Assembly (NCBI GenBank): GCA_949752745.1
Contig: OX457026.1
Location: 48,323,456-48,387,455, forward strand
DNA length: 64,000 bases
Source: Protula sp. h YS-2021
Lineage: Eukaryota; Annelida; Polychaeta; Sabellida; Serpulidae
Direction: 5' to 3'
Shown: positions 35,605-52,032 of the stretch, one piece after another
Numbering within the stretch: the stretch's first letter is position 1
Layout of the letters: the number at the start of each line of letters is the position of its first letter
The notes under the pieces: generated by a model
Database searches by the model: none
The model's input: the letters and a program-made list of their open reading frames with translations, nothing else
Told to the model about the DNA's origin: nothing
Program-made: the position numbers and the translations under genes

Positions 35605-35640
35605 CTTATTTCGTATTAGTGGATGGCCCTTAGAAGGGCC
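35605..35640 (-). terminator. Histone-type stem-loop and downstream element of the RING gene
   Basis: On the minus strand, 21 bases after the RING gene stop: GGCCCT-TCTA-AGGGCC (6-bp stem, 4-nt loop, 35625-35640). Next come 12 bases beginning ATCC, then GAAATAAGCGC. This matches the layout of metazoan replication-dependent histone mRNA 3' ends (stem-loop for SLBP, purine-rich element for U7). No AATAAA is used. The arrangement recurs at two other genes. Confidence 0.7.
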
Positions 35641-35661
35641 GGAAGGTTTTTGCTGTCAGAC

Positions 35662-36216
35662 TTAGAAGAATTCGACAATGTCTTGGATTGGCCTTGCGCA
35701 GTGTGTTAATTGCTGGCTGTTGAAAACGTAATGATCCGTTTTCAGTCCGCAGGTGAAGCATGCAGTCGTGTATTCATCAGCAAGCGCCGTCATGTGAGTC
35801 CAAATTGCAGCGCAGTAAATACATGATTGATGGCCGCAATCCACAGCAATAACGCGATCAGGACTGAGCATGCAGCCGCATGAGATACATATGTCGAGGT
35901 CTTGCTGGAGGAAGAATCTTCCCCATGCTGGATACTCTTCCTCCTCAAGTCTTGATGGCACCAATTCCCCCAGCATGGTGCATCGGAAGTAAGCCTCGAC
36001 GTAATGTCCCTGCTCAATATTTTCCAACCGCTTTCCCAACGTCACCCTCCGGTTAAAAAAGACCGGAACACAGAGGACCTTGGCGTTGGCAGGGTTCGGC
36101 AGCATCTGGTAGAAAAAAAATCTCTCAGGCTGGAACGCTGGCGGCACCACCGGCACTTGCACCTCCCTGACTTCCCTCACCGTGAGAACATCGTTTAACG
36201 CATAGAAGAGCTCCAT
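35662..36216 (-). CDS. RING-finger protein of the left terminal module
   Basis: Encodes 184 residues; start chosen at the ATG at 36214-36216, about 52 bases below a TATA box. Residues 110-156 form a C3HC4 RING pattern: C110, C113, C127, H129, C132, C135, C153, C156 (CISCGC, CGHQSC, CFTCG). RING domains usually recruit E2 enzymes for ubiquitin transfer, so an E3 ligase acting on a host target is the expected role. The N-terminal 100 residues are Pro/Val-rich and unrecognised. It points toward the left TIR and ends in a histone-type stem-loop. It shares a divergent promoter island with the Cys-rich gene at 36585. Substrate unknown. Confidence 0.75.
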   Translation of the reverse strand: MELFYALNDVLTVREVREVQVPVVPPAFQPERFFFYQMLPNPANAKVLCVPVFFNRRVTLGKRLENIEQGHYVEAYFRCTMLGELVPSRLEEEEYPAWGRFFLQQDLDICISCGCMLSPDRVIAVDCGHQSCIYCAAIWTHMTALADEYTTACFTCGLKTDHYVFNSQQLTHCARPIQDIVEFF

Positions 36217-36264
36217 AGCCGTGAGTGATGAAAGCGGTTGTGAGCATGAACTGAAATGGCTACC

Positions 36265-36276
36265 ACTTATATACCA
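36265..36276 (-). promoter_or_regulatory. TATA box of the RING gene
   Basis: GTGGTATATAAGTGG on the minus strand, TATATA at 36268-36273, about 52 bases before the ATG. Confidence 0.55.
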
Positions 36277-36277
36277 C

Positions 36278-36506
36278 TTGAAGTAAGGACCCCCCCCCTG
36301 GCAGCAGATATGAAGCAAGGAAACCCACCCCCCTGGCAGCAGATATGAAGCAAGGACCCCCCCCTAGGCAGCGGATATGAAGCAAGGACCCCCCCCCCCT
36401 GGGCAGCGAATACGAAGCAAGGACCCCCCCCCCCCGGGCAGCGAATACGAAGCAAGGACCCCCCCCCCCTGGGCAGCGGATATGAAGCAAGGACCCCCCC
36501 CCCCAT
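36278..36506. promoter_or_regulatory. Left regulatory array of GAAGCAAGGACCCCC units
   Basis: About seven units of GAAGCAAGGA followed by 7-12 C and then a GGCAGCGGATAT-like linker, with a period near 36-46 bases. It lies between divergent TATA boxes. The same core occurs in reverse orientation in the array at 50829-50970 at the other end of the element. The long G-rich minus strand could also form quadruplexes. The long Gly-rich frames across it are artefacts. Confidence 0.7.
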
Positions 36507-36536
36507 TCAGCATATAATGCGAGGATGGTTGCTAGT

Positions 36537-36548
36537 AGTATATAAAGG
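36537..36548 (+). promoter_or_regulatory. TATA box of the Cys-rich gene
   Basis: TATATAAAGG at 36539-36548, 46 bases before the ATG at 36585. Confidence 0.6.
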
Positions 36549-36584
36549 TGGGTTACAGCTACATTATCCAACACAGGCAGCAAG

Positions 36585-36938
36585 ATGTCGACAAGTCGTA
36601 AAATCACAGTGATGCGAAACGGCAAGGCAGTGACGCTAACGACTGAGTGTTATAAGTGTTGGGTATGGTTGGAGTACCCAGGTCAACCACACAACTGCCC
36701 GGTGCACCACAATGCACCACGACATTACTGCTGCAAAACTTGTGGTGGACTGCTCTGGTACAAGTTTACTGCGAGATTGCCAGGACCGCAGCCATGCACG
36801 GACTGCTGGTGGTGCGGTGCGACGCTGAAAAACTTTGGCTACTATAACTTCCATCCGTTCAAGTGTGCACGAAGACCGTTCTCCATGGAACAATTTTACA
36901 GATATCAGTGTGATTGTGGAAATCCGACTTGTTGGTGA
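36585..36938 (+). CDS. Small Cys-rich, zinc-binding-like protein
   Basis: 117 residues with about fourteen cysteines in CxxC pairs: CYKC, CPVHH, CCKTCGG, CTDCWWCG, CDCGNPTC. There are also several His and Trp residues. This suggests three or four zinc-ribbon-like knuckles. It is basic at the N-terminus (RKITVMRNGK). No named family is recognised; similar small Cys-rich proteins at Polinton and adenovirus ends act as early regulators, which is only an analogy. It has its own TATA box, sits in the left terminal module opposite the RING gene, and ends with a histone-type stem-loop 24 bases past its stop. Confidence 0.7.
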   Translation: MSTSRKITVMRNGKAVTLTTECYKCWVWLEYPGQPHNCPVHHNAPRHYCCKTCGGLLWYKFTARLPGPQPCTDCWWCGATLKNFGYYNFHPFKCARRPFSMEQFYRYQCDCGNPTCW

Positions 36939-36962
36939 AGAGCCAACTCACTAACATCTTTC

Positions 36963-37001
36963 GGCCCTTCTAAGGGCCATCCTCTGCTATGAAATGAAAA
37001 C
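36963..37001 (+). terminator. Histone-type stem-loop and downstream element of the Cys-rich gene
   Basis: GGCCCT-TCTA-AGGGCC at 36963-36978, then exactly 12 bases (ATCC...), then GAAATGAAAACGC. Stem and loop are identical to those behind the RING gene, although this gene is outside the TIR. No AATAAA lies between the stop and the next promoter. Confidence 0.72.
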
Positions 37002-37025
37002 GCAAATTCTGTCTATGTATGAGTG

Positions 37026-37036
37026 TGTATAAAAGG
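37026..37036 (+). promoter_or_regulatory. TATA box of the polymerase gene
   Basis: GTATAAAAGGGG, TATAAAAG at 37028-37035, about 64 bases before the first in-frame ATG (37099). Confidence 0.6.
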
Positions 37037-37098
37037 GGTATGTCTGAGATTACATTTCAGCATTTTAGTTTCAGCAGTTGACGGAACAACAACCAGCT

Positions 37099-40000
37099 AT
37101 GATGAAAAGTAAAGAGCATGGGAAAGGAGTAAAGAGACAAAGGATGGAAGAAGATGACATTTGGCCATACGGTCAAGTTCAGTGTATGGAAAGCAATGTG
37201 AAATTTCCATCTATGGATACTTATGAGACACATACATGCAGTAAAGCTGAGATGAAAGCAGCAAAGAGACAAAAGATGGAAGAAGATGACATTTGGCCAT
37301 ACGGTCAAGTTCAGTGTATGGAATGCAATGTAAAATTTCCATCTATGGATACTTATGAGTCACATGCATGCATACCAGCTGAGATGGACAATGTACCTCA
37401 TGAAGAACATGTTTCAAAGAAACAAAAGACAGGACAAGTAGGGAGAGGTAGAATGCTTAGTCTTGGTGAAAACGCGCAGGAAAAACGGTTTGAATCTGAG
37501 GATGGATCAGATTTACTGCTTGAAATGCGACAGCAAGAGAACCGTATCAAGACACATTTGTTGGAGACCTTAAACCATGGAATGAAATGGTACATTGTCG
37601 TACATGCACGTTTCAAGAAACTGACAGCAAATGATGAAGGTGTTATGGTATAACAAGTGGATAATGCATTTATCAGCAGTCCAACATATGCGGCATACAA
37701 ACCAGCAGATATTGAGCAGGACCTGCCAGATGCCTATAAAGGATTATTTACCAAGTTTGACGAACATGAGCGACAAGGCTCTGGCTGGGTATTGGATAAC
37801 ATACTGTACATTGAAGTACATACAGCTACGTTGGTTCCTCTAGAAGCGAGTAGTTATGTTCCACTACCGAAGAAAGTGAAGAAAACAGAAGGTGTGATAA
37901 ACATTAAGAATGATGATAACAAGTGTTTCTTATGGTCAGTATTGGCTTACCTTCACCCTCATGACAACAACCCGAATCGTGTGAATCATTACAAGCCATT
38001 TGAGAAGGAATTAAAGGTAGAGGGTATGACATTTCCGACACCAATTACTGACATTTCAAAGTTTGAAAAGGAGAACGATGTAGCCATCAACGTGTTTGGA
38101 TATGAACAAGATGTAGTTGTTCCAATACAACTTAGTCGAAACGTCAGTGTGAGAGAAATCAACTTACTTCTGATTAGCAATGACAAGACGAGGCATTACT
38201 GCCTCATCAAGAATTTTAGCAGACTTATGTCTTATCGATCAAAGCATAAGGCTGCATATTTTTATTGTTTCAACTGTTTTCACGGGTTTGTACGACAAGA
38301 TCTTTTAGATAAACATCGTGAAGTGTGTGACAAGAATGGAGCACAACGTTTATCATTTCCCAAGGAACCCTTCATCAAGTTCAAGAATGTGGCTAAACAA
38401 CAGCGAGCACCTTTTGTGATTTATGCCGACTTTGAATGTTTCACGCAAAAGCATGAAGAAGGGGACAAGTATCAACATCATCGTCCAAACAGCTTTGCCT
38501 ATGTGGTTGTAAGCCAGTACGACACACGTGCACCAGTTGTGTATCGAGGAGACAATGCTGTGAAAGTCTTTTTAGACCATATGGTGAATGAACGTGATCG
38601 TATTGTACGTGGTTTAGAGCGGCCAAAGGAAATGGTGATGACTCGTGAAGACAAAAGGAATTTCAAGAACGCTGTTGATTGCTACATTTGTCATGAACCT
38701 CTAGGAGCAGATCGTGTGAGATATCATGACCATATCAATGGCAAATATCGTGGAGCAGCGCACAATGAATGCAACTTACAATTCCGACTTAGAAAGGATC
38801 AGCAAGGGGATAAAGATTCTTTTATCATTCCCGTGTTTTTCCACAATTTGCGAGGCTATGACAGTCACCTGATCATGGAGGAAATTGGGAAATTCAAAGG
38901 TGAAACGATTACAGTCATTCCCAGCACCATTGAAAAATATATTGCATTCACCATGGGCAATCTGAAATTTACAGACAGCTTTCAGTTCATGAGTACCTCT
39001 CTACAGAAGTTGGTATCCAACCTTGCAGCAGAAGGGAAAGATAACTTCTACAACATGACCTCTCACATTCACGATAGTGACCAACAAGATTTGTTGTTGA
39101 GAAAGGGAGTGTACCCCTATGATTATGTGGACGAACCATCCAAGTTTGCTGAAACAAAGCTGCCATCAAAGGACAAGTTTTATAGTCAGCTTAGCGAAGA
39201 GGACATTAGCGACGAGGATTATGCGCATGCACAGAAGGTGTGGGATACATTCAACTGTACCACATTTGGTGAATACCACGACCTGTACCTGAAATCAGAT
39301 GTGTTATTACTAGCTGACGTGTTTGAAAATTTTCGTCAAGTATGCCTCAACACGTATGAATTGGATCCTGCTCACTACTATACAGCACCAGGACTGTCGT
39401 GGGATGCAATGTTGAAAGCGACAAAGGTGAAGTTGGAATTGATCAATGACATTGACATGTATCAAATGGTTGAGCAAGGCATACGCGGAGGAATATCTGT
39501 GATCACACACAAGTATGCGAAAGCGAATAATCCCTACGTAGCAGATTACAATTCTGAGATACCAAGCAACTATCTGATGTACCTCGACGCAAACAACTTG
39601 TATGGCTGGGCCATGTCACAAAGCATGCCGCAAAGAGGATTTATGTGGGTGAGCGAGCCAGAATCCCTCGATTTCATGGATGTAGCTGAAGATGATGACA
39701 TTGGATTCATTTTGGAAGTGGATTTAGAATATCCAAATTCAATCCATGATCGTCATAATCACTACCCACTGGCTCCAGAACGGAAATGTGTCAAAGTTGG
39801 AGAATTGTCAGAGTACAGTCAGAAGCTGCGGGAAGATCTAAACATGAAAGAGAAACCCAGTGAAAAGCTCATTCCTAACTTGTCTGACAAGAAGAAATAT
39901 GTACTTCATTACAGGAATTTACAACAGTACGTCTCACTGGGGTTGAAAGTCACTAAAGTTCATCGCGCCATCATGTTTGAACAGAGCAAATAGTTGGCGA

Positions 40001-40833
40001 AATACATTACCTTGAACACGGAAAAGAGAAAATTGGCCAAGAACCCATTTGAGAAAGACTTCTTCAAACTGATGAACAACTCGGTGTTTGGCAAAACCAT
40101 GGAAAATGTGAGAAAGCGAATCAATGTTGAACTTGTTCACAAGGAAAAGCGGTTCAAGAAACTTGTAGCCAAACCTTCTTTCCACAAATTCAAAATTTTC
40201 AACGAAGATTTGACCGCGGTACATTTACGCAAAGTGGACTTGCTTCTGGATAAACCCATTCAAGTTGGCTTCGCCATTCTCGACCTCAGCAAAGTGCTCA
40301 TGTTCAACTTTCATTACAACTACATCATGGTCAAGTATCCCAATGCCAAGTTGTTGTTCAGCGACACCGACAGTCTATGTTACGACATAGAAACGGAAGA
40401 TATCTACAAGGATATGCAGCAAGATGCTGACCTGTTCGACACAAGTGACTATCCGCCAGATCACTTCCTACATTCCAACGTGAACAAAAAAGTGCTTGGG
40501 AAAATGAAGGATGAGACGGCAGGCATCCCCATTGAAGAGTTTGTTGGACTCAGACCGAAAATGTACAGTTTATTGTGCGGTGGGAAAGAAAAACATACAG
40601 CTAAAGGCATCACTCAAGCTTGTCAAAGACGCATTAAACATGCGCAGTATAGAGACAGTTTGTTCAAGAAAACTCAAACGATGGCTACAGAACACATTAT
40701 TCGAAGTCATAGTCATCAGCTTTTCTCGGGGAAGTTGAGGAAAATAGCCCTCTCCCCATTTGACGACAAGCGATATGTATTGGATGATGGCTATTCCACT
40801 TTAGCGCATGGACATTACAAAGCAATAGCATAA
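37099..40833 (+). pseudogene. POLB: Protein-primed type B DNA polymerase, interrupted by two in-frame stops
   Basis: One frame of 1,245 codons encodes the whole polymerase but has TAA at 37651-37653 and TAG at 39991-39993, with no frameshift. In order: a duplicated zinc-finger-like N-terminus, exonuclease motifs (DFECF near 38430; HNLRGYDSHL near 38850; YLKSDVLLLADVFENF near 39290), a Cys/His endonuclease-VII-like insert (38680-38775), motif A (DANNLYGW, 39585), motif B (LMNNSVFGKTMEN, 40070) and motif C (SDTDSL, 40360). This polymerase would copy the element from a terminal protein primer. All catalytic motifs look intact on both sides of the stops, so this is either very recent inactivation or stop-codon readthrough. 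The broken gene is described only as it stands. Confidence 0.9.
37131..37394 (+). repeat. 132-bp in-frame tandem duplication in the polymerase N-terminus
   Basis: Starts at 37131 and 37263, giving two 44-residue units (EEDDIWPYGQVQCM..NVKFPSMDTY). Unit 2 keeps C-x2-C and H-x2-C spacing typical of a small zinc finger. Unit 1 has Ser in place of the second Cys, so only one finger may bind metal. Confidence 0.85.
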
Positions 40834-40890
40834 AAGAGGGAGGTTCTCCAACGGAAGAGTTATTTGAGGTGTAAACATTGAAGCGTCAAC

Positions 40891-41247
40891 ATGGAACGTG
40901 AAAGTCGTAAGAGATCTACAATTGATATGGATACTCTTGCAGATACAGTTAAAGACTTAAAAGTGAAAAATCCTACCACTACCATCAAGAAATTGAAAGT
41001 GGAGACGGTGCCAACACCACAGTCGTGGGATGGAATGCTTTCTCTAGGAAATGGAAAGTATATCAAGATTATGAAACAAAGCAATGAAGGAGTGGTAAAC
41101 ATTCGCAAGTACCTGAGAGATGAGGGGACTGGAAAAAACCGTCCAACGAAAAAGGGAATTTTGCTGACAATACCTGAATGGAAAATGCTGAAGAAGCAAG
41201 TGAAAGAAGTGGATAAAAGGCTTCGTAGACAAGAAGGTGGCTCATAA
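40891..41247 (+). CDS. PC4-like single-stranded-DNA-binding protein
   Basis: 118 residues. The C-terminal half (about 46-110) follows the PC4/Sub1 pattern: LGNGKYIKIM..., VVNIRKYLRDEGTGKNRPTK, KGILLTIPEWKMLKKQV. PC4-type domains bind single-stranded DNA and melted promoters. In a protein-primed replicon such a protein could coat displaced strands or activate transcription; this is inference. The N-terminus is basic. It lies 57 bases after the polymerase frame and is followed at short spacing by three ORFs ending in similar EW..L segments. Confidence 0.7.
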   Translation: MERESRKRSTIDMDTLADTVKDLKVKNPTTTIKKLKVETVPTPQSWDGMLSLGNGKYIKIMKQSNEGVVNIRKYLRDEGTGKNRPTKKGILLTIPEWKMLKKQVKEVDKRLRRQEGGS

Positions 41248-41259
41248 CAAGGTAAAAAC

Positions 41260-41631
41260 ATGAATGCACTCATGCTGAACGGTGGTGTTTACCTTACTGT
41301 AAATGAGAGGAATGAAGTGATACTAGATTCTAAGACAAGTTATCATCGGTTTAAACCTGAAGTGTGGAAAGACTTTAAAAACATACCACTTGAACCTGGG
41401 CTTAAACGTAGACTTGAAAATAAAGTGGAAGTGACGGTAGCTGAATATGATTCTAACATACGTGTAGAAATCTGTAGAAATCTTTTACAGGATTATCCAA
41501 AGGATTATAAGGGAGTTGTGCCAGATACACCATATACAGATTTGATCCTCTTTGATATCAAGAACTGGCGCGCAGTCTTACGATTCCTAGAAGCTATACA
41601 ACATCCACTCTTCACCATCTTGCGAGCATAA
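41260..41631 (+). CDS. Possible diverged PC4-like protein 2
   Basis: 123 residues, ATG at 41260, 12 bases after the preceding stop. The end reads LILFDIKNWRAVLRFLEAI, which aligns by eye with the LLTIPEWKMLKKQVKEV end of the PC4-like neighbour. Upstream strands alternate charged and hydrophobic residues (VEVTVAEYDSNIRVEI). No metal site or membrane segment. The function is unknown; relation to PC4 is inferred from pattern and position. Confidence 0.5.
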   Translation: MNALMLNGGVYLTVNERNEVILDSKTSYHRFKPEVWKDFKNIPLEPGLKRRLENKVEVTVAEYDSNIRVEICRNLLQDYPKDYKGVVPDTPYTDLILFDIKNWRAVLRFLEAIQHPLFTILRA

Positions 41632-41685
41632 AAACGTCTTTGCAGACAAGGAGACAGCTCATAGTTCATCTGACTTTTGAACGAG

Positions 41686-42027
41686 ATGGAAGACTTTTTA
41701 TCGGAATATAAACCAATTACGCATGGATTCTCATATCTGAGAAACGAATATGATGACATTGTGCTAAGACATTTTGGAAAGTATATCATTCTATCAACTG
41801 ACGAACAATCTGTGTTGAAAGACCATCTAGAGAAGTTCAGGATACCTGGCTTTCTCCTGACAGTCTCAAATGAATTAGAAGTGCGTGTGACTGAGAACTG
41901 CTTAGACGTGTTTGTACAATTTCGTCAATATGACGAGCTTACAGAATGCTACGACTACATCACCCTCAACACAGTGGAATGGTACGCTCTGTTACAAGCA
42001 TTGGATTGGAAAGAACCTAACGCTTGA
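41686..42027 (+). CDS. Possible diverged PC4-like protein 3
   Basis: 113 residues from the ATG at 41686. It shows two strand-then-W/L helix patterns: HFGKYIILSTDEQSVLKDHL, then DYITLNTVEWYALLQALDW at the C-terminus. The latter resembles the PC4 helix start of the first gene. Unrecognised otherwise. It overlaps the frame of the next ORF only outside that gene's likely start. Confidence 0.5.
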   Translation: MEDFLSEYKPITHGFSYLRNEYDDIVLRHFGKYIILSTDEQSVLKDHLEKFRIPGFLLTVSNELEVRVTENCLDVFVQFRQYDELTECYDYITLNTVEWYALLQALDWKEPNA

Positions 42028-42052
42028 ATTCAAAGAGGAAGGAGTGCAACTC

Positions 42053-42310
42053 ATGCGAGGCACCAAGTCCATTGAACTGACGCATTCCATGTGTGTTATG
42101 GTGATGAACATTGATATGAATGATCATGGATATGAACTGAAACTGTCTGAACATGAAGATGTTAAAATAATAAATTTTGCTAGTGGACAGTGTTATGCTA
42201 GTTTTCATAGCATTTACAAACGTGGATGTAATGTCTATGATACATATATTAATTTAGATTGGTATGAATGGCATGTGTTTATTGATGTATTGAATGCATT
42301 TGTAAAATAA
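42053..42310 (+). CDS. Possible diverged PC4-like protein 4
   Basis: 85 residues from the ATG at 42053, 25 bases after the previous stop. The frame is open upstream to 41912, but that region overlaps the previous gene. It ends TYINLDWYEWHVFIDVLNAF, again the (I/L)xLxxxEWxxL pattern. It is the last gene of the rightward block and is followed by AATAAA at 42356. Confidence 0.45.
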   Translation: MRGTKSIELTHSMCVMVMNIDMNDHGYELKLSEHEDVKIINFASGQCYASFHSIYKRGCNVYDTYINLDWYEWHVFIDVLNAFVK

Positions 42311-42355
42311 AAATTCAATGTGAAATAATTGTGAAATGTAAATAATGTATAACAC

Positions 42356-42393
42356 AATAAAAAAGAATGTTGTATAAAACTGTCTTGTTTATT
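42356..42393. terminator. Facing polyadenylation signals between convergent blocks
   Basis: AATAAA on the plus strand at 42356-42361 and AATAAA on the minus strand (TTTATT at 42388-42393), 26 bases apart. The rightward block ends at 42310 and the leftward block at 42460, so each signal sits just past its own block and the transcripts likely overlap at their 3' ends. Confidence 0.65.
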
Positions 42394-44267: not shown

Positions 44268-44269
44268 GA

Positions 44270-44626: not shown

Positions 44627-45387
44627 AATGCTTTTGGTCGAAAATGAAGTTTACAGATCACCTTTCCAGTTTGAAATGGAACATTATAGCCTGTATCGTC
44701 CTTAATATTCATTTCTATCACGTCAAATTTGGATGTGTTTACAGGAACATAATGAGGTTCTCCATAAGTTTTCATGATAATGTCTCCATCATGTCCTTGT
44801 ATTCCAACAGAACGTAGCAAAGGGACATAATAATCACCAACAACTTGTGGCTCACAAATACTACAGTATACATAAAGTGTATAAAATCCCTGTTTCACAT
44901 CAGCTTTATGTTCAGCTGTGCACGTTTCAGTATACCATTGATCTGGAATAAATCCTAAAATCTCAGCTAATCCAGTGGAGAATAACACTTCAAAGCCGTA
45001 TTTTAGAAATAGAAAAACACGTCGTCTAATTTTATCATACTTTATCTGAATAGCTTCCTTAAGGTCATCTTTCATAGAATTAGTTGCTTCTTTATTGACT
45101 GCCTGACATATCTCTTGTATGGATCTGTAGTAACCATAAGGAATATTGATTGTGTCAAGAACAACATTATTCAGTGGTTGTTGTCGATACTGAATAGAAT
45201 AGTCCATTCCATGTCTCATGGTTGTCCATGTATGTGGATATTGAATTTCAGCTAAAGCCACTTCATATTTTCCGTTCAGATAGATGGTTCGAGGCATACG
45301 AATTTGATAATTCGAAGTCTTGTTGTTGGGATAATAGTTCATACTAGCATTGCTGGGTAAAGTAATGTAAAAACTTGTTGACTCCAT
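44623..45387 (-). CDS. Minor capsid protein, single jelly-roll (penton-like)
   Basis: 254 residues. The start (SFYITLPSNASMNYYPNNKTSNYQIRMP) and the LNGKYEVALAEIQYPHTW segment are typical of Polinton penton-like minor capsid proteins, and so is a central LAEILGF element. It would sit at capsid vertices. ATG at 45385-45387. It lies in the packed leftward block between the small acylated protein and the pVI/pX-like gene. Confidence 0.82.
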   Translation of the reverse strand: MESTSFYITLPSNASMNYYPNNKTSNYQIRMPRTIYLNGKYEVALAEIQYPHTWTTMRHGMDYSIQYRQQPLNNVVLDTINIPYGYYRSIQEICQAVNKEATNSMKDDLKEAIQIKYDKIRRRVFLFLKYGFEVLFSTGLAEILGFIPDQWYTETCTAEHKADVKQGFYTLYVYCSICEPQVVGDYYVPLLRSVGIQGHDGDIIMKTYGEPHYVPVNTSKFDVIEMNIKDDTGYNVPFQTGKVICKLHFRPKAL

Positions 45388-45437
45388 GGCAGCTAAATCG
45401 TTTATGTGATGTAGACTAGATGTGTATATACATTACT

Positions 45438-45638
45438 TCATGTTTGACACTCTTCATCTACATTGCTGTCTACATTATTGTCTAAATTGCTATCTACATG
45501 ATCTAAATTGGTATCTTCTACTTCTCCCTGACAACAAGCACTAACACACCTAATTTTTACAGGAATAGTATTTTTATTTCCATTTTCTTTACAACAACAA
45601 CACCATAGCTCTTTAATCCATGTTAAAAAGTTTCCCAT
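45438..45638 (-). CDS. Putative myristoylated/palmitoylated small protein
   Basis: 66 residues beginning MGNFLTW, with Gly at position 2 as required for N-myristoylation. It is followed by a four-cysteine cluster (C13-C16) suited to palmitoylation, another Cys pair, and an acidic tail of repeated DSNLD/DSNVD units. This is the design of a peripheral membrane anchor. A role in envelopment, egress or entry membranes is possible but unproven. It overlaps the upstream gene by 16 bases in another frame. Confidence 0.6.
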   Translation of the reverse strand: MGNFLTWIKELWCCCCKENGNKNTIPVKIRCVSACCQGEVEDTNLDHVDSNLDNNVDSNVDEECQT

Positions 45639-46213
45639 CCTTCTGGAAACAATCTTTGTTGACGCTGTTGTTGCTCTTTTGTAATATCTTCACGAGTTGT
45701 CTTTTTGCCAAAAACAATTTTTGGAATATTAGCGTCTACAATTTCCTCAATAAACTGCTTCCAACCACGCGGTGGTTCTCGTCGTTCTTTTCTTTTTGTA
45801 GCAACCAATGCTTCTTTCAACAAATCAATAATGTTAGAATTTGTAATGACAGTACCTGTTTTTAAAACAAGTTCATTTTTATCTGTCCATCTCGTACCAT
45901 ATTTCTTAAGTTCTGCCAGAAGTTGTGTTAGTTTTACATGATAAATAGGTTGAAAATGGTTTAGAAACTGTTGGAACTTTTCTGATTTTTCTGCATTAGA
46001 TGCTGCAACAGACTTTTGTCGTTGTTGTTGTGATTGAATTGTTCGTAAATGACGTCCAAGCACTTGAGACATTTCTATTGCTTTTTCACGATTTCGTTTC
46101 CCACGTAAAAGTTTATTCACTTTCGTTTTGATTTCAACATCTTTTCCCTTCTTTTCTAACAACATTTTATATTCATATTCAGGAATGAGAACCATTTTCA
46201 AAGTATGTTTCAT
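45623..46213 (-). CDS. Basic coiled-coil protein of the late block
   Basis: 196 residues, rich in Lys, Arg and Gln, with heptad-like helices (residues about 10-110), a KYGTRWT motif and a Gln-rich end (KEQQQRQQRLFP). Position between ATPase and penton genes suggests a virion or assembly protein, perhaps the protein called PW in Polinton descriptions; this assignment is uncertain. Confidence 0.6.
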   Translation of the reverse strand: MKHTLKMVLIPEYEYKMLLEKKGKDVEIKTKVNKLLRGKRNREKAIEMSQVLGRHLRTIQSQQQRQKSVAASNAEKSEKFQQFLNHFQPIYHVKLTQLLAELKKYGTRWTDKNELVLKTGTVITNSNIIDLLKEALVATKRKERREPPRGWKQFIEEIVDANIPKIVFGKKTTREDITKEQQQRQQRLFPEGWETF

Positions 46214-46229
46214 TTTAACAGCAACTGAG

Positions 46230-46523
46230 CTAACAAGGGTAATGCAAATTTAGCAATAGCTCCAATAAATCCTCCTTTCTGATTAACCAACTTCTTTTTT
46301 CTTCGAAGTGATATCTTCTTATTAGCCAGTGACGTTCACGCTTGAATAACTTATACCTTTTTGAGCTTAAGGGTAAATGTCCCCGCAATATATTCAAACA
46401 AATTTCAAACAAGCTAGTTAATTCCTCCTTAGTAGCTTGTTGTAGTAAGGATTTACGTCGTTTAGGCCCGCTGCGTGCGAGCAAGTGAAGGAAAGGTTGA
46501 TTCGCTTGAATACGTTTAGACAT
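46230..46523 (-). CDS. Small basic conserved Polinton protein
   Basis: 97 residues: FLHLLARSGPKRRKSLLQQA, then EICLNILRGHLPLSSKRYKLFKRERHWL and an LLELLLNL end. The pattern (helix, PKRR, NIL.G.LPLS, basic Leu-rich end) recurs, from memory, as a small ORF in many Polintons and adinto-like viruses. Function unknown; a nucleic-acid-binding core protein is plausible. The start overlaps the ATPase stop by 8 bases. Confidence 0.6.
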   Translation of the reverse strand: MSKRIQANQPFLHLLARSGPKRRKSLLQQATKEELTSLFEICLNILRGHLPLSSKRYKLFKRERHWLIRRYHFEEKRSWLIRKEDLLELLLNLHYPC

Positions 46524-47175
46524 CTTGACTGCGAATGGTTAAATGACTTGGTTCTTGTTCATACGCCACCTTATCAACATATACATAATGTGTATCTTTT
46601 GGTAAAATGCCTGTACGAATACGTAGTTGATCATTTGTCTTTGGCTTCAAATCAATGAATAAATAGCCGTGAGGTTTGCTGGTAGCATCTTGATAGGCTT
46701 CTATGAGAAATTGAGATTTTCCAGGATACATTTGTCGCGCTAATGTACTTATTTGTTGACTGTCTCTAGGATTTTTTAACAGAATGATGTAATGTGTATT
46801 CAAACTAATATTACGCATTTCTCTACCATGATGAAACAAATTATGCACAATAAAAAAAATGCTTAGATTTTGATGACTGCTGCCAACACTAAAGAGACGT
46901 GTCATGCGCTCATCACTATGACATTTAGTCATTAAGTCATCAATGATGAGTAAGTTTGGTTTTTTCGGGTTAAAACGCTCTTCAATGTTATCTGGAATGC
47001 CTTGGTAAAATTCCACACCTTTCATTCCCTTATACAAAGGCTGATCTGCTGCATAGAGCCATAAAATGGTTTTTGGAGAGGGTTTAATTAACTTTTGTTC
47101 TAGAATTTCTCTAACTAGAGAAGTTTTACCACTGCCTGTAGGTCCAGAGACCAAACACGTGAATGGATGCTTCAT
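46516..47175 (-). CDS. ATP: FtsK/HerA-type genome-packaging ATPase
   Basis: 219 residues from the ATG at 47173-47175, which overlaps the integrase stop (ATGA). Walker A is GPTGSGKT (residues 11-18), Walker B is LLIIDDL (75-81), and an FFIVHNL segment follows at the place of the A32-type third motif. It would drive DNA into preformed capsids. A longer start upstream lies inside the integrase frame and lacks an ATG. Confidence 0.9.
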   Translation of the reverse strand: MKHPFTCLVSGPTGSGKTSLVREILEQKLIKPSPKTILWLYAADQPLYKGMKGVEFYQGIPDNIEERFNPKKPNLLIIDDLMTKCHSDERMTRLFSVGSSHQNLSIFFIVHNLFHHGREMRNISLNTHYIILLKNPRDSQQISTLARQMYPGKSQFLIEAYQDATSKPHGYLFIDLKPKTNDQLRIRTGILPKDTHYVYVDKVAYEQEPSHLTIRSQDV

Positions 47176-48272
47176 TTTCGAATATCTGTTTCTTTCACCC
47201 AACTGTTAAACTTCTTTGGCCAACCTAACCACTTCACAAATAATTCTTTAACACCTCGTCTTTTTCGTGTTTTCAAGACCTTTTCAATGCTATAGACTGA
47301 TTCAATATCTTTTGTCACTTTCTGCAGTTCTTCTTCATAAAAATGACCGTCAATATCTTCATCCAAAAAGTCTTTCACACGATACAAGTGTATTTCTTGC
47401 TTCTTACAACGATGTGTGATAATGAACACTTCTTGCGTCCACTTTATATGATAATCCCGTTGAAATACATATTTCATGTGAGAAATGCGAACCTGATCAC
47501 CAGTTTTAAATTTGTAGGGTTTTTTCTTCTTTGGTTTTAATTTCAATTTGTCTACATACATATACTTCCACACTTTCGATTCTATGTCTTTACGAATATC
47601 TGCAGGAGCATACTTATTAGGGAGGGAGCCATGAGGTCTATGGTTATAATTATACACTAAGTCTGGAAGGATGTCCATATATCGATACGTTTGATTATGA
47701 AGGAAATATCGATACATCATTCCCTTTAGAGTACGAATGACTCTCTCAGCAAAGTTGGCTTTGGTTTCATTCTTTGTCGTATAGGCATGTATTCCCTCCT
47801 TCTTCAAAAATGCTTTTACCCATCTGTTTTTAAATTCAGTTCCTTTATCTGACCTTAGAGTTCGTGGTCTTCGTTGTGTTTCTTGAAAAATCTTTTGAAA
47901 GGCTTCTATGACGCTGGAATGTGATTTATTAGGCATTGGCTGCACCCATAAATATTTGGAAAACACATCAATGACAACCAATAAAAAGTGGGTATCATCA
48001 TTATAGGAAGCTATGTTTCCCATGTCAGCTAAATCAATATCCCACATGTCATCAATTCCACGTGTAATGACACGTTGCCTTTTAAACCTATATTTTACAG
48101 GTTGTAGTAAACTGAAGGCATCTTGATCCTGTAACCATTTCTTCACTTGTGAATGAGTGACTGGCTGATCATGTTTTTTTAATATGTGATAAAGTTTGTA
48201 AGGACCAGCAAATGTCCCGGGTTGACCAGGTTTAAAGTAAATATTGGTTAAGTAGTCTTTCCACGTCGACAT
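47172..48272 (-). CDS. INT: Retroviral-type DDE integrase with C-terminal chromodomain
   Basis: 366 residues. The catalytic triad is D80 (WDIDLADM), D142 (SDKGTEF) and E176 (FAERVIRTLK), with 33 residues between the second Asp and Glu. Residues from about 328 to the end match a chromodomain (SIEKVLKTRKRRG, LFVKWLGWPKKFNSWV). A chromodomain would tether integration to modified histone tails. It cuts 6-bp staggered sites, consistent with the ACTGCA duplication. It heads the late leftward block, below an array of TTTATCAACA repeats. Confidence 0.92.
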   Translation of the reverse strand: MSTWKDYLTNIYFKPGQPGTFAGPYKLYHILKKHDQPVTHSQVKKWLQDQDAFSLLQPVKYRFKRQRVITRGIDDMWDIDLADMGNIASYNDDTHFLLVVIDVFSKYLWVQPMPNKSHSSVIEAFQKIFQETQRRPRTLRSDKGTEFKNRWVKAFLKKEGIHAYTTKNETKANFAERVIRTLKGMMYRYFLHNQTYRYMDILPDLVYNYNHRPHGSLPNKYAPADIRKDIESKVWKYMYVDKLKLKPKKKKPYKFKTGDQVRISHMKYVFQRDYHIKWTQEVFIITHRCKKQEIHLYRVKDFLDEDIDGHFYEEELQKVTKDIESVYSIEKVLKTRKRRGVKELFVKWLGWPKKFNSWVKETDIRK

Positions 48273-48282
48273 GTTAACACTA

Positions 48283-48412
48283 AATGATCAACACTTGTTA
48301 ACATATCTTGCATTTTATTTTATCAACGCATCTAACATTTTATCAACATATCATGCATTTTATCAACACATCTTAAATTTTATTTTTATCAACATGTCTT
48401 ACAAATCGAGTA
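48283..48412 (-). promoter_or_regulatory. TTTATCAACA repeat array upstream of the integrase operon
   Basis: Five to six copies of (T)TTTATCAACAYATC / GATCAACACTTG spaced 19-27 bases in the only non-coding gap before the integrase-to-protease gene series. On the minus strand the unit is GATRTGTTGATAAAA. A regulator-binding cluster or late promoter is likely. Confidence 0.55.
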
Positions 48413-48740
48413 TTGATACAATGGTGTGAATAATTGAAGTCCATTGATCTTCAATGTATATTAACCAGCTACTTAATTCATCAAATGTGATAGCATCTAC
48501 GCCATATTTTTCACAACGTTGATTTGCATTATCTAGCACTTTATCTAAATGAATGTAATATTTAGCTTCATTCCAATATGTATAGACACATGTAGAATGA
48601 CACATATGTTCTGAACACTCTTCATTTTGACAAGCAGGACATACTAAACATGCAAACTTTTTTACAGCTAATAACATTTCTTCACAATAATGTTTTGCAC
48701 AATATATTGTCTCAATGTAATGTCCACCATTATACTGCAA
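48399..48740 (-). CDS. Cys-rich small protein
   Basis: Up to 113 residues but without an ATG at its head; the first in-frame ATG is codon 22. Cys pairs (CLVCPACQNEEC, HMCHSTC) suggest a zinc-binding knuckle, then a helical end (ITFDELSSWLIYIEDQW). The frame upstream is closed only by the TGA at 48759-48761, and the ORF beyond that TGA is in the same frame (48759-48926). This raises a broken or readthrough gene. No family is recognised. Confidence 0.45.
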   Translation of the reverse strand: MQYNGGHYIETIYCAKHYCEEMLLAVKKFACLVCPACQNEECSEHMCHSTCVYTYWNEAKYYIHLDKVLDNANQRCEKYGVDAITFDELSSWLIYIEDQWTSIIHTIVSILDL

Positions 48741-48758
48741 TGTAGATTGACCACTCTC

Positions 48759-48926
48759 TCACTTCATCAAACAGTCCTCGCGTAAGTTTGGTACGTTCAA
48801 CGTGGAATGAGCAAGTTCCCAATAAATGTCAAAGTGCTGCAGTTGTTGTTGAATAGATCCAAAACGTGCCAGTTCACTTATCATGTAGTCCACATACTTG
48901 TCCTTAAAACACGTTTCTACATCCAT
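48759..48926 (-). CDS. Short ORF, possibly the 5' part of a frameshifted gene
   Basis: 55 codons from an ATG at 48924-48926 to a TGA at 48759-48761. Toward its end another frame becomes the better coding candidate (FHVERTKL, GLFDEVREWSIYIAV, stop at about 48731). That second segment shows the same hydrophobic/EW pattern as the PC4-like relatives. A one-base indel near 48800-48815 would join the first half to it. Unproven; too short for firm homology. Confidence 0.35.
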   Translation of the reverse strand: MDVETCFKDKYVDYMISELARFGSIQQQLQHFDIYWELAHSTLNVPNLREDCLMK

Positions 48927-48990
48927 CTTTCACATGTCCATATAACACGTCTGCACACTGTGGCGGCTGGTAAGCAAATGACTCTCAGTC

Positions 48991-49611
48991 TTACTCCACA
49001 GAAACAGTTAGTAAGCCGCACTTGTTGCAGAAGTTGTCTGGTTCACACAACTTGCAATTGTACTTGTGGCAGTGACAATCATAATCCTCAGCATATCCGT
49101 AAGCACCGCAATATTCACAGGTAAGTCCAAGTTGATTTTGCACATCCATATTCTCCAATTGAACTTCAGCCAGTCTTTTCTTAGATAACTTTGACACTTT
49201 CATCCGATTGTCCTTTTGCAGCTTGATAGGAGTTTTCTTGCCATGACATTCCGTACATGGCAATAAGGTTGAGGTAATGCTATCCATCTCCTGAAGCAAT
49301 GTCTCCCATTCACCATCATTCATTTTGATGTAATACTTGTATTCTTTCCCTTCAAACAGTGATGCTTGCACAAAACTCACATAGCGCATATCCAAGTATG
49401 AAATGACTTCAAGCCACTTCGTTTGCGTTAAGTATAGTTTGAAGCCAATGTCGCGTAATCTTGCTAAGTTCAGACACACAATCTTCCACAAGGATGGTGA
49501 TAAAGCAAGCCATCTCTCTCCACGTTTGATTCGAATAAATAATCCAAATTGTCCATGCTCCACAGTAATGGTTAAGTTTGCACTAATTTTAAAGCTTCTT
49601 GTCTTCTCCAT
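48991..49611 (-). CDS. PC4-like/zinc-ribbon protein
   Basis: 206 residues from the ATG at 49609-49611, about 40 bases below a TATA box. The N-terminal half has three strand-helix units (RWLALSPSLWKIVCLNL, FKLYLTQTKWLEVISYL, YKYYIKMNDGEWETLLQEM) that resemble the PC4-like pattern. The C-terminal half is Cys-rich: CTECHG, CEYCGAYGY, CHCHKYNCKLC and CNKCG, so two to three zinc knuckles. It probably binds nucleic acid; the specific role is unknown. Confidence 0.6.
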   Translation of the reverse strand: MEKTRSFKISANLTITVEHGQFGLFIRIKRGERWLALSPSLWKIVCLNLARLRDIGFKLYLTQTKWLEVISYLDMRYVSFVQASLFEGKEYKYYIKMNDGEWETLLQEMDSITSTLLPCTECHGKKTPIKLQKDNRMKVSKLSKKRLAEVQLENMDVQNQLGLTCEYCGAYGYAEDYDCHCHKYNCKLCEPDNFCNKCGLLTVSVE

Positions 49612-49648
49612 GGCTGCGCGTTGAATGATGACTGCACTTGACACCTCA

Positions 49649-49664
49649 CTCCTTTTATATGGAC
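49649..49664 (-). promoter_or_regulatory. TATA box of the PC4-like/zinc-ribbon gene
   Basis: CCATATAAAAGGAG on the minus strand, placed 40 bases before the ATG and within bases of the upstream gene's stop. Confidence 0.6.
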
Positions 49665-49665
49665 A

Positions 49666-50742
49666 TTACATGTATGTTTTCATTAGATGCTTGCAAAATC
49701 GAGGAGTAATCTCGTTGAAACCATCCAGAAAGGCTGTTGGCAAACCGTCTGTCAAAGATTGTCTCATAACAATCACTAAAAAGTCTCCTCGTTTGCGACT
49801 TCCAATTATCCATTGAAAGAGCATTGGCATGGTGAAATGTCCTTTTTCATAGAGGTAAGCCATCATATCATACACCTTAATATATTCTTCAAGGTATTTG
49901 AAGCCATGTAGCATGACCTTTGCACATTTGGAATCGCGATCCTCATCAACACACTTTGGCGTCGGTAGAGATAAAGTCTTAAAAAGTTCCTCATGAAGAC
50001 TTCGAATAAGTTGAACGAAACGTCGGATCATGGCTTCGGAGAACTGCGGCTCTGACTCGGGAACATGCTCAATGTTTCCTTCTAGCATGTAGATAAGCTG
50101 AATGACAGTGTTCACTTCTTCCGTTAGGTATATGTATGTGTGCTGATCGAAAAAGCCTTCTTCACATAAACACCATAAAATGTTGCAATCAATCAGAGGA
50201 ATCACTGCTTGAAAGTTTCGTTTCAACAGCGTGACGTCTTCCTCAGTAACAGGAATAGTTTTGCTCAATTCGAATTTAGATTTGAGCTGCTTGTCATCGT
50301 CGTCGCTGTCGTCATCGTCGTTGTCGTCATTGTCGTCATCGTCGTTGTCGTCATTGTCGTCGTCACCGTCGTCATCGCTTGACATAACCACTTCTTCCTC
50401 CTCAAGATGCTCTAGATGAGCCTGTAACTTTGTACTAAGTGGCTTGGCGCTACCAATTACAAGCGCATTGGCAACCCAGAACGGATAGTCAGATCTCTCG
50501 GGATCGGGCATTGCTTGCTGTACTGGCTGTACTTCTTCAGGCCTAGTTTGCTGTACTGTAGACACGTCTGACGGAGCCTCTAATGCTTCCTCCAAGGCTT
50601 TTTCAGCTTCTGCTAGTGTACTTAGGAAGACAGCAGTCTCCTCTGCAGTTAAAACTGCATCTGTAAAAGCCATTGTTTCATTGCTGAACAGGCTATCAAT
50701 TTCCATGTTGCTAGCCGTTGCTGCTTTTCGAGACGTCTCCAT
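49666..50742 (-). CDS. Acidic protein with two death-fold (CARD-like) domains
   Basis: 358 residues from the ATG at 50740-50742. Residues about 121-150 are an Asp-rich tract. Two helical domains follow: about 168-226 (AVIPLIDCNILWCLCEEGFF, then IQLIYML) and about 286-345 (YDMMAYLYEKGHFTMPML, then SRKRGDFLVIVMRQSLTDG and FLDGF). The second follows the CARD rhythm of a helix ending LxxxGxFT, a (K/R)RGDFL helix and a final AFxxGF/L helix. CARD proteins of viruses act in cell-death or innate signalling, so a host-modulating role is inferred. Only about 20% of the fold is conserved in such families; a structure-based search is decisive. Confidence 0.55.
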   Translation of the reverse strand: METSRKAATASNMEIDSLFSNETMAFTDAVLTAEETAVFLSTLAEAEKALEEALEAPSDVSTVQQTRPEEVQPVQQAMPDPERSDYPFWVANALVIGSAKPLSTKLQAHLEHLEEEEVVMSSDDDGDDDNDDNDDDDNDDNDDDDSDDDDKQLKSKFELSKTIPVTEEDVTLLKRNFQAVIPLIDCNILWCLCEEGFFDQHTYIYLTEEVNTVIQLIYMLEGNIEHVPESEPQFSEAMIRRFVQLIRSLHEELFKTLSLPTPKCVDEDRDSKCAKVMLHGFKYLEEYIKVYDMMAYLYEKGHFTMPMLFQWIIGSRKRGDFLVIVMRQSLTDGLPTAFLDGFNEITPRFCKHLMKTYM

Positions 50743-50783
50743 GATGGTTTGGCAATGCAATGGCTATAGTGGTGTCGACCCGA

Positions 50784-50795
50784 CGTTTTTATACT
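50784..50795 (-). promoter_or_regulatory. TATA box of the CARD-like gene
   Basis: TATAAAAACG on the minus strand (50786-50793), about 45 bases before the ATG. Confidence 0.6.
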
Positions 50796-50828
50796 ACTGA
50801 GCCGTGAGCCCAGCGGCTAAATAGTTGG

Positions 50829-50970
50829 TGAGCCAGGGGGGGGTCCTTGCTTCAGGTCGACTGACCAGGTCGACTAGGGGGGGGGTCCTTGCTTCAGGTC
50901 GACTGACCAGGTCGACTAGGGGGGGGGGGGGGTCCTTGCTTCAGGTTGACTGACCAGGGGGGAGGTCCTA
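50829..50970. promoter_or_regulatory. Right regulatory array of GGGGGTCCTTGCTTC units
   Basis: Three to four units of a G-run plus GGTCCTTGCTTCAGGTCGACTGACCAG(GTCGACTA). The core is the exact inverse of GAAGCAAGGACC in the left array (36278-36506). It lies between divergent TATA boxes of the CARD-like and zinc-finger genes, mirroring the left module. Confidence 0.7.
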
Positions 50971-50978
50971 TATAATAG
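50967..50978 (+). promoter_or_regulatory. TATA box of the right-end gene
   Basis: CCTATATAATAGC, TATATAATA at 50969-50977, about 60 bases before the ATG at 51038. Confidence 0.6.
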
Positions 50979-51037
50979 CAGCCTCGCACTGTATGCAGTC
51001 AGTCTGCCTTTGATCATTGAAGGAGCAACAGCTAAAA

Positions 51038-51691
51038 ATGCAACACAAAGATGAATTTTTCTCGCCAGAGCTTAGGGCTCGCTACTTCTTGTCGCAGAAG
51101 GATGTAGATCTCTGGGAAGATATCTATGTAGAATATCAAACATTTCTATTTCGACAGTGGAGGAATTTTCTCAGGAACAGACCTGAAGAAGAGTTCAACC
51201 GGTTTGGCAGGGCGGCAGAGGAACGATACAAGCGTCGGAGGGAGAGCTTGCTCGACAGGAGCCAGGACCCACCGCCCTGCCAGGAAGAAAGGCTAGCCAG
51301 GACCACAGCAGCGACAACCACGACGACGGCAACCCCTGCCAAGGCGACTCCTGCTGCAGCCACGACGTCAACACTGACGACTCCGCCGATAGCGATTCCA
51401 ACGGCAGCTGATGTCACTGTCTTGAAGGTTCCGGCGGAAGAAGTTGTAGTCAAACGGCGAAATCTTCCTAGCGCCACAGTTACCAAGCCGGAGACAGTGA
51501 CACCAGCTCCTGAGGAAGAGCTAGCAACCGCTGTCGCCAGTATAACGGACCTCACGCAGGTGGACTTCAGCCTCATGCAGTCGCCCTCCGACAATGACTG
51601 CACCGTGGAACTGGTTGACGTGAAACAGGAGGATGGCTCTTCCAAAAAGTCAACCCTCCAGGATATCGTAGTTTTTGGATACGGCGGATAA
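51038..51691 (+). CDS. Thr/Ala-rich right-end protein, unrecognised
   Basis: 217 residues from the ATG at 51038. The N-terminal 80 are charged and helical (FFSPELRARYFLSQKDVDLW, FRQWRNFLRNRPEEEFNRF). The middle is a low-complexity Thr/Ala/Pro linker. The end is acidic (DFSLMQSPSDNDC...), like a transactivator tail. It terminates at 51691, but an overlapping frame (51675-51926) continues with zinc fingers, so the original product may have been longer. It has a TATA box and regulatory array upstream and a histone-type stem-loop downstream. Confidence 0.6.
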   Translation: MQHKDEFFSPELRARYFLSQKDVDLWEDIYVEYQTFLFRQWRNFLRNRPEEEFNRFGRAAEERYKRRRESLLDRSQDPPPCQEERLARTTAATTTTTATPAKATPAAATTSTLTTPPIAIPTAADVTVLKVPAEEVVVKRRNLPSATVTKPETVTPAPEEELATAVASITDLTQVDFSLMQSPSDNDCTVELVDVKQEDGSSKKSTLQDIVVFGYGG

Positions 51692-51926
51692 TGTGCAGTT
51701 TTGCAGCTTCTGCCATTTTGGATTACCGGCAGGAAGCTCTCTACGAGTCCACGAACAGACATGCCCAGATGCGTTAAAGCCGGAGTACCATTATTGTAAC
51801 GTTCTGGGTAGAGGTTTCAGGACACACAGGGCCGCGGTAGCAGCGCATAGGAGGAGAGCTGGCTGTAGGGAGGATGACGGCAGCGGCAGAGGCGGAGACG
51901 GCGACGACGCCAAGGCGAAATGGTAG
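51675..51926 (+). CDS. Zinc-finger continuation in the overlapping frame
   Basis: An open frame with no ATG at its head, preceded by a TAG. It encodes a C-x2-C...H-x3-C finger (FCSFCHFGLPAGSSLRVHEQTC, split here by spacing), a second degenerate finger (YHYCNVLGRGF...AAHRRRAGC) and an acidic/Gly-rich tail. It most likely belongs to the preceding gene through a frameshift, programmed or mutational, in the 17-base overlap, or through a small unspliced intron. Confidence 0.5.
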   Translation: MDTADNVQFCSFCHFGLPAGSSLRVHEQTCPDALKPEYHYCNVLGRGFRTHRAAVAAHRRRAGCREDDGSGRGGDGDDAKAKW

Positions 51927-51990
51927 GGGAAGCGGCGGCAGGGGAAGCGACAGGAAGTGGACCGGCGGAGAAAGCAGAAAATACCTCCAC

Positions 51991-52032
51991 GGCCGCTTTT
52001 TAGCGGCCACCCATTATTACGAAATGAGCGCG
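51991..52032 (+). terminator. Histone-type stem-loop and downstream element of the right-end gene
   Basis: GGCCGCT-TTTT-AGCGGCC at 51991-52008 (7-bp stem, 4-nt loop), then 12 bases starting ACCCA, then GAAATGAGCGCG. The stem sequence differs from the two left stem-loops but pairing, loop size and the 12-base spacing are kept. ACCCA is the usual base string after histone stem-loops. Confidence 0.72.

What the first reader, a model, noticed from the sequence alone, without database searches (positions are those of the whole stretch)
35605..52032. Three terminal-module Polinton genes end in histone-type stem-loops
Seen: behind the RING gene (35625-35640, minus strand), the Cys-rich gene (36963-36978) and the right-end zinc-finger gene (51991-52008) is a 6-7 bp GC stem with a 4-base T-rich loop (TCTA, TCTA, TTTT). 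In all three cases exactly 12 bases later comes GAAATRA. The bases after the stem are ATCC, ATCC and ACCC. Known: replication-dependent histone mRNAs end in a 6-bp GGYYCU...AGRRCC stem with a U-rich 4-nt loop, then ACCCA, then a purine-rich U7 target about 10-15 nt on. Inference: the element borrows SLBP/U7 processing, making these non-polyadenylated, S-phase-linked early transcripts in step with its own replication. I know of no description of this in Polintons.
Basis: partly seen in the sequence, partly recalled or inferred. Interest (0 to 1): 0.92.

Follow-up and report, generated by a model that had tools for sequence, protein, structure and literature searches.

The report
Virus-like transposon borrows histone mRNA endings
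Several genes at the ends of Polintons, virus-like jumping elements in an animal genome, carry the same mRNA-ending signal as the host's own histone H1 genes, which suggests that these elements make tail-less messages like those of histones.

Summary
Behind three genes stand 6-7 bp GC hairpins with a T-N-T-N loop and GAAATRA exactly 12 nt on: 3 of 3 such hairpins in the element, none with the motif in 300 shuffles. Rfam's histone 3' stem-loop model matches only these three places in 64 kb, on the gene's strand, all below its cut-off.

The host genome gave the key test. Five histone H1 genes, found with the same model, end in GGCCCTTCTMAGGGCC, 12 nt, then [GA]AAATAAGC; one has the Polinton's exact 16-nt hairpin and GAAATAAGC. 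Related Polintons carry the signal behind RING and Cys-rich genes. A second Polinton family has four different such hairpins behind four successive genes, in 17-20 of 20 copies read.

Most likely the host SLBP/U7 machinery cuts these transcripts and they lack poly(A). Not shown: RNA ends, U7 pairing, S-phase timing. Against: hairpin 3 fits poorly and is missing in the one relative read there. One paper counts six histone stem-loops in a polinton-like virus/virophage collection, without comment.

The parts
34909..54991 (.). Whole Polinton, 20,083 bp, flanked by the 6-bp duplication ACTGCA (34903-34908 and 54992-54997)
   Evidence: TIRs and duplication:
34909..35544 (+). Left terminal inverted repeat, begins AGTAGGGG
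   Evidence: 636 nt, 98% complementary to 54356-54991
54356..54991 (-). Right terminal inverted repeat
35662..36216 (-). RING-like gene, 184 aa (label by cysteine pattern; no Pfam match; weak PDB matches to TRIM RING chains, E 0.13-0.15)
   Evidence: relatives in the genome
35625..35640 (-). Histone-type stem-loop 1, 21 nt after the RING stop
35606..35612 (-). Downstream element GAAATAA, 12 nt after stem 1
36585..36938 (+). Cys-rich gene, 117 aa
   Evidence: relatives in the genome
36963..36978 (+). Histone-type stem-loop 2, 24 nt after the Cys-rich stop
36991..36997 (+). Downstream element GAAATGA, 12 nt after stem 2
37028..37035 (+). TATA-like box ahead of the PolB unit, about 30 nt past the downstream element
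51038..51691 (+). Right-end gene, first frame (217 aa)
51693..51926 (+). C2H2-like piece of the right-end gene in another frame
51991..52008 (+). Histone-type stem-loop 3, 7-bp stem
52021..52027 (+). Downstream element GAAATGA, 12 nt after stem 3
42356..42361 (+). AATAAA 46 nt after the last stop of the PolB unit (contrast: ordinary poly(A) signal)
42388..42393 (-). AATAAA 67 nt after the protease stop, end of the integrase-capsid unit
48379..48384 (-). AATAAA 15 nt after the stop of the 92-aa ORF, taken as end of the unit from 50742
40891..41247 (+). PC4/p15 coactivator homologue
   Evidence: PF02229 E 2.3e-9, above cut-off

Best explanation
The terminal genes of these Polintons end in a histone-type 3' processing signal: a stem-loop for the host's stem-loop binding protein (SLBP), an ACCC/ATCC flank, and a downstream element GAAATRA 12 nt after the stem, as in the host's own histone H1 genes. 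Inferred mechanism: SLBP binds the hairpin, U7 snRNP pairs with the GAAATAAGC-type element, CPSF73 cuts a few nt after the stem, and the mRNA ends in the stem-loop without poly(A). The RING, Cys-rich and right-end proteins would then be made chiefly when the histone machinery is active (S phase), while the polymerase unit, the integrase-capsid unit and one further unit use ordinary AATAAA sites. Shown: the two-part signal, its match to host H1 genes, its recurrence behind the same genes in related elements, paired changes in the stem, and the split into two classes of gene end in the window. Inferred: binding, cleavage, absence of poly(A), S-phase coupling.
For: Beyond chance. RF00032 matches on the sense strand at 3 of 3 places and nowhere else in 64 kb at E up to 10. 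Host H1: 5 of 5 genes read, all found through RF00032, have GGCCCT-TCTM-AGGGCC, ACCCAATRTTCC (12 nt) and [GA]AAATAAGC; L033 has the window's 16-nt hairpin and GAAATAAGC letter for letter. A stricter count (4 or more G-C among the six pairs next to the loop) finds 0 hairpins in the 43.9 kb of window outside the element, 3 in the element, 1 in each of five 9.9-kb H1 stretches, 0 in 9 kb of core genes of a second Polinton; all 3 and all 5 have AAATRA 9-15 nt on. Family 1: 10 loci chosen by RF00032; a RING relative precedes the hairpin in 9 of 10 (none found in L044), AAATRA at 12 nt in 8 of 10. Not selected on the hairpin: the Cys-rich gene was found in 6 of those 10 stretches; 4 of 6 have an intact hairpin plus GAAATGA at 12 nt, 2 of 6 have damaged stems but keep GAAATGA. 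Family 2, 20 copies read of 54 equal-scoring matches: four different hairpins, in 19, 20, 20 (the one selected on) and 17 of 20; AAATRA 10-12 nt on. Pair 4 switches between C-G and T-A, pair 1 between G-C and A-T. AATAAA 46, 67 and 15 nt after the last stops of the three other units.
Against: No RNA data. Hairpin 3 departs from the SLBP consensus (7-bp stem, 17.7 bits), and in the one relative where its place was read (L069) the stretch is absent; two further stretches (L070, L071) missed the place. The host's AAA just before the stem is replaced by other, mostly C/T letters in the Polinton copies printed. The window's three sites are copies of one module, not three origins, and its scores stay under Rfam's cut-off. 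Family-1 RING hairpins, one of the four family-2 hairpins and the H1 genes were all found through RF00032, and loop T-N-T-N and full pairing were search conditions. Host U7 was not found (control silent) and core histone genes were not read. In family 2 the core AATAAA lie 148-194 nt after the stops and two of the four hairpin genes have AATAAA or ATTAAA within 200 nt, so the split is less clean there. Two matches (L046, L048) could not be tied to a gene.
Confidence: 0.85

Rival explanations
1. The hairpin acts in DNA: it is part of the inner terminal repeat and serves replication, integration or packaging, and the likeness to histone ends is incidental.
For: Hairpins 1 and 3 lie in a 98-nt inverted repeat just inside the TIRs.
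Against: Hairpin 2 is internal, behind the Cys-rich gene; family 2 has four different hairpins behind four genes in tandem, not at two mirrored ends; letter match with host H1 genes including the downstream element; T-N-T-N loop only on the sense strand.
Confidence: 0.05
2. The module is an ordinary but weak poly(A) site: GAAATRA stands in for AATAAA and the GT-rich stretch after it is the usual downstream element; the hairpin is accessory.
For: G+T is 0.64-0.76 in 25-nt windows 32-57 nt after the stem in all three copies; TATGTATG and neighbours are conserved in all three.
Against: GAAATRA is not one of the usual poly(A) signal variants (recalled); other units of the element have plain AATAAA; the same arrangement stands behind host H1 genes, a gene class that is cut by SLBP/U7 in other animals (passages of PMC5011920, and PMC7026596).
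Confidence: 0.07
3. A histone 3' end was captured once and is carried passively, without function.
For: The three window copies are homologous; damaged hairpins exist in relatives (L036, L041) and one is missing (L069).
Against: Several different stems and loops, all within the consensus, in two families; paired changes keep the helix; motif spacing 10-12 nt kept while the spacer sequence changes.
Confidence: 0.03

Closest known systems
Replication-dependent histone 3' end (RF00032 stem-loop plus histone downstream element; SLBP and U7 snRNP)
   Same: 6-bp GGYYYU/ARRRCC stem, U-N-U-N loop, ACCC/ATCC after it, downstream element at 12 nt, short distance from the stop; near letter identity with the host's H1 genes.
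   Different: Serves non-histone genes of a mobile element; no AAA before the stem in the window copies; window scores under Rfam's cut-off; one of three has a 7-bp stem.
Polinton/Maverick (adintovirus-like) elements
   Same: 6-bp duplication, TIRs beginning AG, integrase with chromodomain, packaging ATPase, protease, MCP with many relatives.
   Different: Histone-type ends on the terminal genes; the searches listed no functional account of this.
Histone 3'UTR stem-loop matches (n = 6) in a polinton-like virus/virophage collection, PMC12220804 (one passage and section 16 read)
   Same: Same named RNA feature in related viruses.
   Different: Only counted; section 16 gives no gene context, downstream element, host comparison or mechanism, and does not list it for the cryptophyte elements. 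Supplementary tables not read.
Hairpin-type mRNA 3' ends of mimivirus and virophages (recalled)
   Same: Hairpin behind viral genes.
   Different: Recalled as longer, without fixed sequence and at nearly all genes; here short, GC-rich, fixed loop pattern, only at terminal genes, with a downstream element.

Membership tests
Replication-dependent histone 3'-end signal | 6-bp stem GGYYYU/ARRRCC with loop U-N-U-N (consensus from Rfam's line and recall) | tested here: met
   Hairpins 1 and 2 fully; hairpin 3 only in part: 7-bp stem, in the six pairs next to the loop positions 2 and 4 are off
Replication-dependent histone 3'-end signal | RF00032 at or above gathering score | tested here: not met
   28.7, 24.4, 17.7 bits against 34 in the window. 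In the host genome 63 of 73 listed matches are over the cut-off, most of them Polinton copies
Replication-dependent histone 3'-end signal | Downstream element at the host's spacing and sequence | tested here: met
   12 nt and [GA]AAATAAGC in 5 of 5 host H1 genes read; GAAATRA at 12 nt at 3 of 3 window sites
Replication-dependent histone 3'-end signal | A-rich flank just before the stem | tested here: not met
   Host TAAA/CAAA; window TTCC and TTTC for hairpins 1 and 2, CTCCAC before the 7-bp stem 3
Replication-dependent histone 3'-end signal | No poly(A) signal near the stop | tested here: met
   RING: no AATAAA/ATTAAA down to the element end; Cys-rich: none before the next TATA box; right-end gene: first ATTAAA at 52342 and AATAAA at 52350, over 330 nt past hairpin 3
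Replication-dependent histone 3'-end signal | Host U7 snRNA 5' end complementary to the downstream element | tested here: inconclusive
   RF00066 search found nothing, control silent; pattern search did not complete
Replication-dependent histone 3'-end signal | mRNA without poly(A), S-phase expression | not testable with these tools
   No RNA data
Polinton/Maverick | 6-bp target-site duplication and TIRs starting with AG | tested here: met
   ACTGCA; AGTAGGGG
Polinton/Maverick | RVE integrase, PolB, packaging ATPase, protease, MCP | tested here: met
   PF00665 and PF00385, ATPase by PF02456; PF00770 at 20.9 bits, cut-off 21.3; MCP relatives. PolB pieces gave no Pfam PolB match; the label rests on recall and on a long similar ORF in L013

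The most novel reading that the evidence does not exclude
Polintons run a two-class 3'-end programme. Terminal, possibly host-manipulating genes end in histone-type stem-loops and peak with host S phase; replication and capsid units are polyadenylated. The element's own PC4 homologue, made from a polyadenylated unit, damps U7 processing, as human PC4 is reported to do, and so turns the stem-loop genes down as the cycle proceeds.
Probability: 0.2. Interest if true: 0.95.

Novelty: new variant of a known kind. Interest (0 to 1): 0.87.

Why it matters
Histone-type 3' ends are known as the mark of replication-dependent histone mRNAs. Virus-like elements that use them on their own genes would be a hijack of a cell-cycle-gated mRNA route, would predict which Polinton genes act in S phase, and would explain why such transcripts may be missing from poly(A)-selected RNA data. 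In this genome most RF00032 matches listed (up to 68 of 73, by score class and sampled reading) are not behind H1 but belong to, or may belong to, Polintons, so the signal can also mislead histone gene annotation.

Tried and rejected
Relatives outside the host: MCP, MCP alignment, integrase and a PolB piece against IMG/VR, MCP alignment against GTDB contigs and MCP against phage records gave no relative. A hairpin pattern scan of IMG/VR gave 3 contigs; L002 and L003 are near-identical stretches with long phage-like ORFs, and the L001 match (23 bits) lies inside an ORF; taken as chance.

RING and Cys-rich proteins had no match at E 1e-3 in the protein collection, although relatives exist in the host genome. 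The RING model had mean pLDDT 36 and was not used. One search was useless: my bracket string did not fit the MAFFT columns, and MAFFT staggered the loops. The model R1 was used only to ask for further copies in the window: none beyond the three (two matches at E above 5). Folding gave the expected hairpins but z-scores of only -1.1 to -2.1.

My first element bounds (35546-52089) were wrong: that pair is an inner inverted repeat. In one search the zinc-finger piece was translated one base off (2 stops); the right frame is and was not searched again. My note 2 gives 72 nt for the protease AATAAA; one search gives 67.
Full report
1. The element. The window (G000:C3:48323456-48387455, an 863-Mb genome in 218 contigs) holds a Polinton at 34909-54991: 636-nt TIRs 98% alike, starting AGTAGGGG, and the duplication ACTGCA on both sides. 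It encodes an integrase with chromodomain and a packaging-type ATPase, an adenovirus-type protease just below its Pfam cut-off, an MCP with 563 protein matches at E 1e-3, 120 of them listed, PolB pieces without a Pfam PolB match, and a PC4 homologue.

2. The signal. Hairpins at 35625-35640 (-), 36963-36978 (+) and 51991-52008 (+) have GAAATRA exactly 12 nt after the stem. By one set of conditions the element has 3 such hairpins, 3 of 3 with the motif; 300 shuffles gave 0 with the motif. RF00032 matches these three places and nowhere else in 64 kb at E up to 10, each on the strand of the gene before it, but each under the gathering score. The sites are copies of one module. Between sites 1 and 2 the 16-nt hairpin plus ATCC is identical and GAAATRA 6 of 7, while the spacer is 4 of 8 and the next 21 nt 7 of 21 ungapped. 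Between sites 1 and 3 the stem gains one base on each arm and stays paired (alignment, read by eye).

3. Two classes of gene end in the window. AATAAA lies 46, 67 and 15 nt after the last stops of the PolB unit, the integrase-capsid unit and the unit that I take to run from 50742 to 48399; for one unit, chance is about 0.055 within 75 nt. The RING gene has no AATAAA/ATTAAA down to the element's end, the Cys-rich gene none before the next TATA box, and the right-end gene's first is at 52342. TATA-like boxes stand before the RING, Cys-rich, PolB, 49666-50742 and 48991-49611 genes, in keeping with RNA polymerase II.

4. Host histones. RF00032 in the host genome listed 73 matches at E 1e-3, 63 of them over the cut-off; only the best 75 candidates of 158,589 were scored, so counts are lower bounds, and the window's own weaker sites are not in the list. 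Five of the 73, on C4 at 76.2-76.5 Mb, lie behind histone H1 ORFs: GGCCCT-TCTM-AGGGCC, ACCCAATRTTCC, [GA]AAATAAGC, spacing 12, in 5 of 5. L033 matches the window's hairpin and GAAATAAGC letter for letter. Core histones were not read. Bivalve histone genes have been described with hairpins and with purine-rich elements in some genes only (PMC6210712, one passage).

5. Relatives. Of the 73, 54 share one score, 37.4 bits. I read 23 of these 54 places: L006-L011 and L049-L068, three of them twice. One (L012 with L013) is a Polinton with MCP-, protease- and PolB-like ORFs and four hairpins on one strand behind four ORFs: Cys-rich, a short ORF, RING, and a 105-aa ORF. In 20 copies read over this stretch the four are present in 19, 20, 20 (selected on) and 17; I did not check why 1 and 3 are missing. 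For the other copies only this stretch was read, so calling them Polintons rests on that one locus. Of the remaining 14 matches, 10 are window-like: a RING relative precedes the hairpin in 9 of 10, AAATRA follows at 12 nt in 8 of 10. In these 10 stretches the Cys-rich gene was found in 6: 4 with intact hairpin and GAAATGA at 12, 2 with damaged stems; in 4 it was not found. The last 4: L017 (Cys-rich, second family), L028/L047 (Cys-rich relative with hairpin; behind its RING relative a hairpin with a mismatch-type pair and AAAAATAAGC), L016/L046 and L024/L048 (not tied to a gene).

6. Against. Hairpin 3 was absent in the one relative where I could read its place: L069 runs from the gene into the array; L070 and L071 missed the place. 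The A-rich 5' flank of the host is not kept. U7 was not found. In family 2 the split between AATAAA and hairpin genes is less clean. Selection by RF00032 affects H1, the family-1 RING hairpins and one family-2 hairpin.

7. Reading. A hairpin of histone type, the host's own spacing and the host's own downstream element, behind the same classes of terminal gene in two Polinton families, is best explained by use of the host SLBP/U7 route. That U7 snRNP cuts between hairpin and downstream element is from PMC7026596 (passages); that a cnidarian's replication-dependent histones have hairpin and downstream element and lack poly(A) signals is from PMC5011920 (passages). Processing, lack of poly(A) and timing in this element are inferred.

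8. A bold extension. Human PC4 is reported to interact with U7 snRNP and CstF64 and to lower histone pre-mRNA processing (PMC6062981, abstract). The element encodes a PC4 homologue in the polyadenylated PolB unit; three neighbouring small ORFs and 48991-49611 share an I...EW pattern with it, without statistical support. A switch from hairpin-ended to polyadenylated transcripts is possible but untested.

9. Print. Searches for Polinton/Maverick with histone stem-loop or related terms (listings only, except the papers named) showed no functional description. [quoted passage not shown] PMC5799277 came up only through its reference list. The library holds open-licence papers only.

Noticed in passing
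window 40891-41247 (+): PC4/p15 coactivator homologue (PF02229, E 2.3e-9); human PC4 is reported to bind U7 snRNP (PMC6062981 abstract).
   Followed up: partly
window 41260-42310 (+) and 48991-49611 (-): Small ORFs with a faint shared pattern with the PC4-like protein; Pfam does not support it.
   Followed up: partly
window 51038-51926: Right-end gene lies in two reading frames, the second C2H2-like; described only.
   Followed up: no
window 37099-40833: The PolB region is split over several ORFs, so this copy is probably inactive.
   Followed up: no
window 36279-36504 and 50836-50958: Short tandem repeats with C or G runs (GCAAGGACCCCCCCC; GGGGTCCTTGC on the right) between the divergent terminal gene pairs, similar motif at both ends.
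   Followed up: no
window 52128-53270: Tandem array, period 83-151, with GAAATRAA(C)GCTAAATCTGTC units that resemble the stretch after hairpin 2.
   Followed up: no
host genome, loci L006-L011 and L049-L068: Second Polinton family in dozens of dispersed, very similar copies (54 matches with one score), which suggests recent spread.
   Followed up: partly
L046 (C2:55.617 Mb) and L048 (C9:38.61 Mb): Histone-type hairpins not tied to any gene that I recognised.
   Followed up: no
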